Source of the DNA: Melioribacteraceae bacterium
GTDB taxonomy: Bacteria > Bacteroidota > Ignavibacteria > Ignavibacteriales > Melioribacteraceae
Assembly: GCA_015493615.1 (NCBI GenBank)
Contig: WGCV01000012.1
Coordinates: 1-59,824, forward strand
Reading direction: 5' to 3'
Length of the DNA: 59,824 nt
Positions 48,187-59,824 of this stretch are shown one piece after another. Both the position numbers and the translations under genes were made by a program. The first letter of the stretch is position 1. Every line of letters starts with the position of its first letter. Under the pieces are notes generated by a model. That model saw nothing but the letters and a program-made list of their open reading frames with translations, had not been told where the DNA came from and searched no databases.

Positions 48187-48333
48187 CTTTGCAAAACCTA
48201 AATTTGTCATATTGAGGACGGTGTAAGCCATCCGAAATATCTCTAAATTCGGTATAATTACCGGTTTTGAGATTCTTCTCCCGCTCCGCCTTGGCGGAGG
48301 ATCAGAATGACATATAAATTAGGTTATGCAAAG
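48187..48333 (+). repeat. MITE-like element with terminal inverted repeats (copy 1, intact)
   Basis: 147 bases between two genes. The left arm CTTTGCAAAACCTAAATTTG (48187-48206, then TCAT) is matched in inverted form by the right arm ending GGTTATGCAAAG (48307-48333); 14 of the first 15 bases agree. The interior has a short inverted pair (CCGAAAT ... ATTCGG, then ACCGGT) and a GAGATTCTTCTC ... CTCCGCCTTGGCGGAG ... CAGAATGACA unit of the common REP-like type. A second copy that lacks the right arm is at 58174-58313. No coding capacity, so it would need a transposase supplied elsewhere. Confidence 0.75.
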
Positions 48334-57853: not shown

Positions 57854-58173
57854 TTTTTAACTCCCGGCGAGACTTGAATTTAGTCTGTAATATTAATTTG
57901 AATCTGCAGTACGCGAATAAGTTTAAGGCGATTGCAGTATGGTATTACATTAACTTCTTTCTGCAAAAAGCGGGAGAGGAGCATTTTTTGTAAGAGGTAA
58001 AAAGTCAGTAATCCTCGGGGCAGAGGAAAATGAAGAACTAAGATATTCGCGTATTTGCATTGAAAAAATAGAACACGGATTAAGCGGATTATCGCTATAG
58101 TACCTTATTGGTGATATTTTGTTTTTTGGGCAAAGTATGTTCTCAAATTCTCTAAAGTATTTTAGTAGAAACC

Positions 58174-58313
58174 TTTGCATAACCTAAAATTGTCATATTA
58201 AGTCCGCCAATCCGCTAAGGCGGAGGAGGAGTGGAAGCCGTCCGAAATATCTCTAAATTCGGTACTATTACCGGTTTTGAGATTTTTCTCCCGCCAAGGC
58301 GGGATCAGAGATT
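58174..58313 (+). repeat. MITE-like element, copy 2, right arm missing
   Basis: CTTTGCATAACCTAAAATTG (58174-58193) is the left arm. The interior matches copy 1 (CCGAAATATCTCTAAATTCG; then ACCGGTTTTGAGATT; then CCGCCAAGGCGGGATCAGA). Copy 1 continues after GATCAGA with ATGACATATAAATTAGG, but here the text changes to GATTGTATGTTTAAAA. The right arm is therefore absent, at the left boundary of the IS. Confidence 0.78.
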
Positions 58314-58342
58314 GTATGTTTAAAAATAAAAAAGTAAAAAAA

Positions 58343-58353
58343 AGTTGTCCCCC
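58343..58353 (+). repeat. IS left subterminal inverted repeat
   Basis: AGTTGTCCCCC, pairing with 59783-59794 on the other side of the transposase. Confidence 0.6.
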
Positions 58354-58422
58354 GCTGCAAAATTGAAAATAATCAATTTATTATTATCTTATAAGATATA
58401 ACTAACAGTCGGAGGACAACAA

Positions 58423-59490
58423 ATGAAAAATAAGAACTTAGACTTTAAGGGACAAGAAATTTATAATGGCATTGACACTCACAAAAATCATTGGGATGTA
58501 ACAATAATGCTTCATGGTATGCAAGTAGCAAAAATAAGTCTTGACCCGAAACCGATAGCACTGGCCAAGTATTTAAGGAAAAACTATCCTGGAGGAATTT
58601 ATTACTCAGTTTACGAAGCTGGCTTCAGTGGATTTTGGGCACATAGAGAGTTGTTGGAGTTAGGAATAAAAAACATAATAGTCAATCCCGCCGACGTTCC
58701 AACAAAGAGTAAAGAGCGACGAAGAAAAAGCGATAGAATAGATTCGGCAAAATTAGCCCGAGAATTAAGCGTAGGTAACTTAGAGGGTATTTATGTCCCC
58801 ACGGTCGAAGAAGAGTCTTTCCGTAATTTAGTACGTCTGCGGGAGCAATTTAAGAAAGACCAAACCCGGCAAAAGAATAGGATAAAATCGCTGTTGAATT
58901 TCGTAGGAGCAAAACTGCCGGAAGATATCGATCAAAAGCATTGGAGCAAACGCTACATAACAGCATTGCGTCAGTTGCCTATTGAGCAGCCGGAGACAAA
59001 ACAAACTCTAAATGAACTGCTCGACAGTTTAGAAAACATACGTGGACAGATATTAAGAATTGTTAGACAATTAAGGAAAAATGTCAATTCAAAAGAGGAC
59101 TCAAAACAGATAATAGAATTATTGTTAAGCGTACCGGGAGTTGGGTTTATAACTGCAATTACCCTTTATTCTGAAATAATAGATATGAATCGTTTTAAGA
59201 AACTTGAAGAATTAGCCGCTTATGTCGGATTAGCCCCGGCGGTTTATTCTTCCGGAGAAAAAGAAAAAACACTTGGGTTAAGTAAGCAAAGGAATAAATA
59301 TTTGAGGAATCTGATAATTGAAGGCACTTGGACAGCCATTAGGAAAGATCCGGCTTTACAGATGGCATATGGTAAGTTGCTCAATAGGATGTCGTCACAA
59401 AAAGCGATTATAAGAATGAGCAAAAAATTATTAGGAAGAATTCGTCATGTCTGGAGTAAAAAAGAAAAATATGTTCTATCGGTAGTTTAG
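58423..59490 (+). CDS. IS110-family transposase (DEDD)
   Basis: 355 residues, intact. The N-terminal RuvC-like domain has YNGIDTHKNHWDVT (first Asp), SVYEAGFSGFWAHRE (Glu) and KSDRIDSAKLAREL (Asp-x-x-Asp). A coiled middle region follows. The C-terminal Tnp20 domain reads LLLSVPGVGFITAITLYSEI, LAAYVGLAPAVYSSGEKEK (catalytic Ser in YSSG) and SKQRNKYLRNLIIEG. IS110 transposases recombine via Holliday-like strand exchange guided by a bridge/seek RNA and leave no target duplication. GGAGGA at 58411-58416 precedes the ATG. The element looks active. Confidence 0.95.
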   Translation: MKNKNLDFKGQEIYNGIDTHKNHWDVTIMLHGMQVAKISLDPKPIALAKYLRKNYPGGIYYSVYEAGFSGFWAHRELLELGIKNIIVNPADVPTKSKERRRKSDRIDSAKLARELSVGNLEGIYVPTVEEESFRNLVRLREQFKKDQTRQKNRIKSLLNFVGAKLPEDIDQKHWSKRYITALRQLPIEQPETKQTLNELLDSLENIRGQILRIVRQLRKNVNSKEDSKQIIELLLSVPGVGFITAITLYSEIIDMNRFKKLEELAAYVGLAPAVYSSGEKEKTLGLSKQRNKYLRNLIIEGTWTAIRKDPALQMAYGKLLNRMSSQKAIIRMSKKLLGRIRHVWSKKEKYVLSVV

Positions 59491-59782
59491 AAGAACATCA
59501 AAAAACAATAAATAACAAAAAAGGTAAAATTAGTTCTTTCAATATATTGTTTCTGATATCGACCGTTTTTTTGTCATTGCAAACCTTAAGAGAAATCAAA
59601 CGGGTATTGTTTTTCAGAGTTTGCGGCGATACTCTAATTTTTAATATAAATCTTGCAGCGCCTCGTAGAATATTCAAGAGAGGAAGACTGTTTATAACAG
59701 TATGAAATAATTTTATTAGAAAGAACTTAAAAGGTTATATGGTGAAATATTTTATGTGATAATTGTAATTATATATTGCTGT
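59491..59782 (+). ncRNA. Candidate seek/bridge RNA region of the IS
   Basis: About 290 noncoding bases between the transposase stop and the right subterminal repeat; no gene-like frame. It has small hairpins (AGAGT ... ACTCT near 59617-59636, ACTGTT ... AACAGT near 59689-59703), which suits a structured guide RNA. IS1111-type elements encode theirs here. The exact RNA ends are not visible. TGTCAT (59572-59577) is complementary to ATGACA of the expected target, but six bases may be chance. Confidence 0.4.
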
Positions 59783-59794
59783 GGGTGGACAATT
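59783..59794 (-). repeat. IS right subterminal inverted repeat
   Basis: GGGTGGACAATT, inverse match to 58343-58353 (GTTGTCC core). Confidence 0.6.
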
Positions 59795-59824
59795 TTCTCA
59801 CCTTACTTGATTTTTAACATAACA

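What the first reader, a model, noticed from the sequence alone, without database searches (positions are those of the whole stretch)
58174..59824. IS1111-like element apparently inserted into a REP/MITE-like repeat
The intact MITE copy at 48187-48333 continues past GATCAGA into a right terminal arm. The copy at 58174 matches it up to GATCAGA and then breaks exactly where the IS left end should be. Some IS110/IS1111 elements are known to target REP palindromes. The prediction is precise: just beyond the IS right end the lost arm (beginning ATGACATATAAATTAGG) should resume. That would show the target site and core bases of a guide-RNA-directed recombinase.
Basis: partly seen in the sequence, partly recalled or inferred. 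Interest (0 to 1): 0.68.

Follow-up and report, generated by a model that had tools for sequence, protein, structure and literature searches.

The report
RNA-guided IS1111 element in MITE arm
A small mobile DNA element sits exactly inside one of a bacterium's many copies of a short repeat, and its own guide-RNA region carries letters matching both sides of that site, which is how a known family of RNA-guided elements picks targets.

Summary
The window is all of contig C12; its last 131 bases equal the end of contig C42 of the same genome, and C42 reads on past the IS into the missing MITE arm: ...AACATAAC|AATGACAAATTTCGGGGTTATGCAAAG. Gene order in a congener supports the join. The IS is 58309-59823 (1515 bp), has IS1111 anatomy (7-bp and 3-bp extensions outside subterminal inverted repeats, no duplication) and splits GATCAG|AATGACA. 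Its downstream non-coding region holds a predicted hairpin RNA: TTTGTCATT pairs with the right side (9 nt) and TCAG(A) equals the left side, in the order published for seekRNAs. Across relatives, guides follow their own flanks (0 of 1000 shuffles, n=23), the outer stem covaries, and the four others tested also sit just before AATGACA in repeats. A second segment matches the IS's own joined ends and changes with them, like a bridge-RNA donor loop. The kind is known (ISPa11 and IS621 in REPs, IS4321/IS5075 in Tn21-family ends). New are host group, target, and a series with constant right and changing left guide. Function is inferred, not shown.

The parts
48187..48333 (+).
58168..58308 (+). Left part of the interrupted MITE, ending GGGATCAG
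   Evidence: start (after a TA) set by eye
58309..59823 (+). IS1111-family insertion sequence, 1515 bp
   Evidence: ends set by the uninterrupted MITE site and the C42 flank
58309..58315 (+). 7-bp left extension AGATTGT
   Evidence: rule from PMC11187229
58316..58327 (+). Left subterminal inverted repeat ATGTTTAAAAAT
58423..59490 (+). Transposase/recombinase gene, 355 aa (PF01548 + PF02371; GLAPAVYSSG motif)
59491..59823 (+). Downstream non-coding region, 333 nt
59555..59634 (+). Predicted target-reading hairpin (seekRNA-like): outer stem, two guides, apical stem
59570..59578 (+). Right-side guide TTTGTCATT, complement of the right flank AATGACAAA
59614..59617 (+). Left-side guide TCAG (followed by AG), identical to the left flank
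59649..59653 (+). AATCT, complement of the start of the left extension AGATT (possible donor guide, weaker half)
59694..59700 (+). ATAACAG, identical to the joined IS ends ATAAC|AG (possible donor guide)
59810..59820 (+). Right subterminal inverted repeat ATTTTTAACAT (one base shorter than the left one)
59821..59823 (+). 3-bp right extension AAC
59824..59824 (+). First base of the right flank; the arm goes on in C42 (143543 downwards, reverse strand): AATGACAAATTTCGGGGTTATGCAAAG

Best explanation
This is an IS1111-family insertion sequence that inserted by RNA-guided, duplication-free recombination at TCAG|AATGACA, the inner edge of the right arm of a high-copy MITE, and so cut that copy's right arm from its body. 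The excised circle would join right end to left end and create a promoter for the transposase gene and the downstream non-coding region. The RNA of that region has a target loop: TTTGTCATT pairs with the top strand on the right, TCAG(A) with the bottom strand on the left. It probably also has a donor loop that reads the joined IS ends. Shown by sequence: both junctions, uninterrupted sites, guide letters, change of guides with flanks and of stem arms with each other across relatives, conserved ends. Inferred from characterised relatives: expression of the RNA, its binding by the transposase, circle formation, and the recombination itself.
For: Right junction and arm; uninterrupted sites; contig join by gene order; family matches; end anatomy in 29 relatives; guides fit own flanks: T 160 against 84.8 and B 160 against 87.8 on shuffling, 0 of 2000 each, n = 29; stricter joint test 232 against 155.4, 0 of 1000, n = 23; outer stem 78 of 96 paired against 54.8, 0 of 5000, n = 16; five of five members tested lie before AATGACA in repeats; joined-end promoter-like spacing in 27 of 29; donor segment 104 against 72.1, 0 of 2000, n = 15.
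Against: One copy only in this genome and no experiment. The left guide matches this target over 4-5 nt only. The folding energy of the RNA is not better than that of shuffles (z -1.33, 21 of 200 fold as well). Own flank was the sole best for 11 of 23, and the two guides were found at the expected order and spacing automatically in 17 of 28. Shuffles do not model relatedness. No Rfam match.
Confidence: 0.93

Rival explanations
1. The C12-C42 link is accidental: C42 begins after a different copy of the IS, so the left flank in the window and the right flank in C42 come from two insertions into two MITEs.
For: The contigs break exactly at the IS end, so more than one path left the IS in the assembly.
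Against: HtpG-like and RecQ-like genes are direct neighbours in congener G004; here the first lies next to the IS on C12 and the second (97% identical) next to the end of C42 in fitting orientation. No second copy was found in the genome. Even if true, both junctions would still be MITE junctions.
Confidence: 0.05
2. Target choice is made by the transposase protein, or the AATGAC flank is part of the IS; the guide matches are coincidence or common descent.
For: The right flank starts AATGA in 7 of 29 elements, which are related to each other; short matches can arise by chance.
Against: Uninterrupted repeats without the IS carry AATGACA. Elements with other right flanks carry other guides with matches of 7-10 nt, for example L103, L107, L118, L122 and L123. 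Left guides differ within the AATGAC group in step with left flanks.
Confidence: 0.03
3. The RNA reads the target only (seekRNA view); the second segment resembling the joined ends has another role, such as RNA processing or transposase binding.
For: PMC11187229 reports that an 82-nt seekRNA suffices for ISEc11 movement. The complement half of the donor segment is weaker: 8 of 2000 and 1 of 3000 shuffles reach the observed value in two scorings. End types follow relatedness, which shuffles ignore.
Against: 26 of 28 elements carry at least 7 nt identical to their own joined end, and the AAC, AGA, AAG and AAA types change together. L098, whose left end begins GGG instead of AG, scored low but its RNA region reads ATAACGGGTTG, identical to its own joined ends. 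PMC11208160 predicted donor-binding nucleotides in many IS1111 RNAs (passages).
Confidence: 0.3

Closest known systems
ISPa11 (IS1111 family; REPs of Pseudomonas aeruginosa; seekRNA shown) - PMC11187229 (parts 1-3 of 9 and passages read), PMC1525189 (abstract and passages)
   Same: IS1111 anatomy, downstream non-coding region, insertion at one point and in one orientation of a high-copy repeat, no direct repeats, top-strand complement before bottom-strand match
   Different: Host is a Melioribacteraceae-related bacterium; the target is a MITE-like repeat with site TCAG|AATGACA; RNA predicted, not purified
IS4321/IS5075 (IS1111 family; [quoted passage not shown]
   Same: IS1111 element inserting in the terminal arm of another mobile element
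   Different: Here the victim is a non-autonomous high-copy MITE, split at the inner edge of its right arm
IS621 (IS110 group; E. coli REP; bridge RNA) - PMC11208160 (passages)
   Same: REP target; RNA with target and donor segments; related transposase (PDB 8wt6)
   Different: IS621 belongs to the group with the RNA in the left end; here it is downstream, with long subterminal repeats and reversed guide order
ISEc11/ISXne4 natural re-direction - PMC11187229
   Same: Related elements whose guides and targets changed together
   Different: Here a series in which the right guide stays on AATGAC while the left guide differs with the repeat family

Membership tests
IS1111 family | DEDD (RuvC-like) transposase with C-terminal PF02371 domain | tested here: met
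   PF01548 6e-14 and PF02371 1.4e-24; NCBIfam NF033542, 230 bits, cut-off 140
IS1111 family | GL-P----S(T)G motif in the C-terminal part | tested here: met
   GLAPAVYSSG at residue 269; motif as given in PMC11187229
IS1111 family | Subterminal inverted repeats of about 11-13 bp, 7 bp outside on the left and 3 bp on the right | tested here: met
   ATGTTTAAAAAT / ATTTTTAACAT with a one-base difference in length; AGATTGT and AAC outside
IS1111 family | Long non-coding region downstream of the transposase gene | tested here: met
   333 nt downstream against about 114 nt upstream within the IS
IS1111 family | No target duplication; uninterrupted site equals the two flanks joined | tested here: met
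   GATCAG + AATGACA = MITE site
IS1111 family | Circular form with joined ends carrying a promoter | tested here: inconclusive
   Joined ends give TTGATT-17-TATGTT, as TTG-N20-TATGTT in 27 of 29 elements; circle itself not seen
seekRNA / bridge RNA system | RNA with a complement of the target top strand, then a match to the bottom strand | tested here: met
   TTTGTCATT then TCAG; guide-flank tests; sequence prediction only
seekRNA / bridge RNA system | RNA made, bound by the transposase and needed for movement | not testable with these tools
   needs expression and transposition assays
Bridge RNA (target and donor loops) | Second loop that reads the joined IS ends | tested here: inconclusive
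   Identity half well supported, complement half weak
MITE (the interrupted repeat) | Inverted terminal arms and short target duplication | tested here: inconclusive
   Arms CCTTTGCATAACCTAAATTTGTCAT / ATGACAAATTTAGGTTATGCAAAG and flanking TA seen by eye; not counted
MITE (the interrupted repeat) | An autonomous element with the same ends | not tested
   The one pattern search was mis-spaced

The most novel reading that the evidence does not exclude
A clade of IS1111 elements lives on REP/MITE-type repeats by keeping one guide half fixed on the shared arm (AATGACA) and changing only the other half as repeat families turn over, so that guide evolution tracks repeat evolution. Its RNA is a full two-loop bridge RNA, and the donor-guide copy in the element's own DNA (ATAAC|AG) is itself an occasional recombination site, which would explain a 125-bp duplication of the right end implied by the contig breaks.
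Probability: 0.12. Interest if true: 0.65.

Novelty: new member of a known kind. Interest (0 to 1): 0.42.

Why it matters
A precise prediction made from raw sequence alone held to the base. It yields a natural series of guides and targets for IS1111 recombinases in a bacterial group for which my literature searches listed no such report. The donor-segment data bear on an open point, whether IS1111 RNAs read the donor as well as the target, and the series suggests that such elements can change target one half at a time.

Tried and rejected
Fixed-k assembly overlap as the reason for the 131 shared bases: not supported, because other contig ends of the genome share 150 b. A generic 12-bp inverted-repeat scan for the IS ends missed them because the two repeats differ by one base in length; a motif scan found them. 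Folding energy alone as evidence for the RNA: not significant; covariation was used instead. Alignments A1 and A2 served only to see conserved letters. The pattern search for a full-length partner of the MITE had one N too few, so its zero means nothing. Viral contigs gave one truncated relative, plasmids three hits at 31-33% identity at E <= 1e-40, Rfam nothing at E <= 1.

Rows dropped. Of 95 loci with a transposase match, 33 gave a candidate end pair. I dropped L065 and L066 (same elements as L094 and L096) and L106 and L160 (doubtful pairing), leaving 29. L135 was dropped from then on (non-coding region under 120 nt), leaving 28. One search used 23 of these 28, one per close group by my choice. 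One search was given 18 elements and used 16 (L112 and L133 did not fit the arm rule); by my reading the rule misplaced the 5' arm in L069 and L107, which lowers the score. One search used 28 elements and 15 representatives, one per distinct left extension; the same 15. Guide positions were set by me, by judgement where the automatic best hit lay elsewhere (for example L096, L069, L098, L109, L103, L126, L074).

Full report
What was claimed and what is there. The sequence is as described. The window is the whole of contig C12 of a 3.15-Mb genome in 67 contigs. Its last 131 bases are identical to the last 131 bases of C42 in reverse. Read in that direction C42 gives ...TTGATTTTTAACATAAC|AATGACAAATTTCGGGGTTATGCAAAGCCTTCTAATATG, a MITE right arm. 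Uninterrupted copies commonly read GATCAGAATGACA, others ATTCAGAATGACA and a few variants. The ends are therefore set: IS 58309-59823, flanks GATCAG and AATGACA, no duplicated bases.

Is the contig join real? In the congener G004 an HtpG-like gene is followed directly by a RecQ-like gene (gene names by eye). In the window's genome the HtpG-like gene is the last long open frame before the IS on C12, and the RecQ counterpart (97% identical) lies near the end of C42 in fitting orientation, behind a Fic-like gene. So C12 and C42 are very likely neighbours, with MITE, IS and Fic-like gene between the two. No Fic-like match was found in the four congener loci examined. No read across the junction is available here.

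What the element is. The 355-aa product matches PF01548 and PF02371 and NCBIfam 'IS110 family RNA-guided transposase' and has the GL-P----SG motif that PMC11187229 gives for IS1111 transposases (parts 1-3 of 9 of its text read, and passages). The only solved relatives found by sequence are the ISCro4 and IS621 transposases. The ends follow the IS1111 rule: subterminal repeats with 7 bp outside on the left and 3 bp on the right. Joined ends give TTGnnn-N17-TATGTT in 27 of 29 elements. The host is probably of the family Melioribacteraceae: the congener G004 holds the same element and position as public record JALWEC010000446.1, a Melioribacteraceae MAG.

The guide. In the 333-nt downstream region TTTGTCATT (59570-59578) is the complement of AATGACAAA, the right flank, and TCAG (59614-59617), followed by AG, equals the left flank plus the first IS bases. 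The order, top-strand complement first, is the one reported for IS1111 seekRNAs. In 29 elements with defined ends, guides match their own flanks better than shuffled flanks: T total 160 against 84.8 (highest shuffle 122), B total 160 against 87.8 (highest 120), 0 of 2000 each. A stricter test with one member per close group, no IS bases counted and restricted spacing gives 232 against 155.4 (highest 185), 0 of 1000, n = 23; the own flank was the sole best for 11 of 23. Left to the best single hits, guides appear in the expected order 22-41 nt apart in 17 of 28; the other 11 were off, several of them distant relatives. Shuffles do not model relatedness. Of 16 folds made, 14 by my reading put both guides between an outer stem and an apical hairpin (L098 and L113 do not), though guide letters partly pair with each other in several. 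The outer stem covaries: 78 of 96 positions paired against 54.8 after shuffling arms (highest 71), 0 of 5000, n = 16. The folding energy of the window RNA is unremarkable, z -1.33.

A series of targets. L094 has a 97% identical transposase and the same guides but sits in another repeat...CCTTCAG|AATGA (contig end). Of the ten related places examined in its genome G004, two (L164, L172) read exactly CCTTCAG|AATGACA; the others vary. L096 sits at ATCGA|AATGACA; of 11 loci examined in its genome G022, L174, L177, L178, L179 (and L183, the same place as L179) read exactly that; the alignments of the others stop short. L070 sits at TTCGA|AATGACA; 9 of 11 loci examined in its genome G053 reach the junction and all 9 read |AATGACA, some of them overlapping. 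L067 sits at GTCGA|AATGACAAC; in its own genome G057 the one copy reaching the junction reads GTCGA|AGGACAAC, while 14 loci from congeners G053 and G056 read GTCGA|AATGACA, some of them the same place. With the window this makes five of five members tested that lie just before AATGACA in repeats, four within their own genome and one by congeners. L095 (ACAG|AATGACGG) and L097 (TGCGG|AATGACAA) share the right half; their repeats were not searched. The right guide ends in GTCATT in this group, while the left guide differs (TCAG, TCGA, TGCGG before AG) in step with the flanks; L095 fits the left flank only with a wobble pair.

A donor loop. Further downstream ATAACAG (59694-59700) is identical to the joined ends ATAAC|AG. 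Where relatives end in AGA, AAG or AAA, their RNA region reads ATAGAAG, ATAAGAG or ATAAAAG; 26 of 28 have 7 nt or more (192 against 138.6, 0 of 1000), and 15 representatives give 104 against 72.1 (highest 94), 0 of 2000. The two that scored low are L095 and L098; L098 has a left end beginning GGG, and its region reads ATAACGGGTTG, identical to its own joined ends. The complement of the left extension, expected upstream, is weaker: 52 against 43.3, 8 of 2000, or 66 against 55.5, 1 of 3000, in a looser scoring. End types follow relatedness, so these shuffles overstate the case. The pattern agrees with donor-binding nucleotides predicted for IS1111 RNAs in PMC11208160 (passages only) and stands beside the report that an 82-nt seekRNA suffices for ISEc11.

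Known or new. REP targeting by elements of this group is well documented (PMC1525189, abstract and passages; PMC11187229; PMC11208160). Insertion of IS4321/IS5075 in transposon ends is known to me from a title in a reference list. Natural re-direction of guides is published for ISEc11/ISXne4. My literature searches listed no report on such elements in Ignavibacteria or Melioribacter; the library lacks most subscription journals and preprints. I file it as a new member of a known kind; host, target and the half-fixed guide series are the new parts.

Loose end. The shared 131 bases start at ATAACA, the donor-guide copy, and end at ATAACA, the IS end plus one target base. A border of six or more bases occurs in 60 of 59,693 windows of that size. 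A tandem duplication of a 125-bp unit at the right end in the sampled population would explain both contig ends. It cannot be tested without reads.

Noticed in passing
window 59694-59824 and G000:C42:143543-143673: The 131 bases shared by the two contig ends begin and end with ATAACA (border of 6; such borders in 60 of 59,693 windows of that size), as if the IS right end were duplicated in tandem (125-bp unit) in the sampled population.
   Followed up: partly
whole genome G000; e.g. C3:34019-34585: TCAGAATGACA occurs 228 times, at C3:34019-34585 five times at about 130-160 b spacing, so the guide's target exists in large excess and mostly unoccupied by this IS.
   Followed up: no
L098:3036 region (non-coding region printed): The only one of the 29 elements whose left extension begins GG instead of AG carries ATAACGGGTTG in its RNA region, identical to its own joined ends over 11 nt.
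   Followed up: no
joined ends of L103, L107, L109, L118 and similar elements: Their left repeat reads TATGTTTG, which fits the Bacteroidota promoter motif TAnnTTTG (recalled, no call), so the circle promoter may be adapted to the host sigma factor.
   Followed up: no
window 58352-58364 and 59648-59659: Left-end stretch GCTGCAAAATT and its near-complement AATCTTGCAGC downstream of the guide hairpin pair at 11-12 of 12 positions in L094, L095, L096 and L097; role unknown, part may be the donor guide.
   Followed up: no
L132:2401 (69% identical transposase, contig ends inside the gene): Its left flank reads GCTCCTCGC|AGATTGT, which would predict a guide ending CTCGC before AG; the non-coding region is missing.
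   Followed up: no
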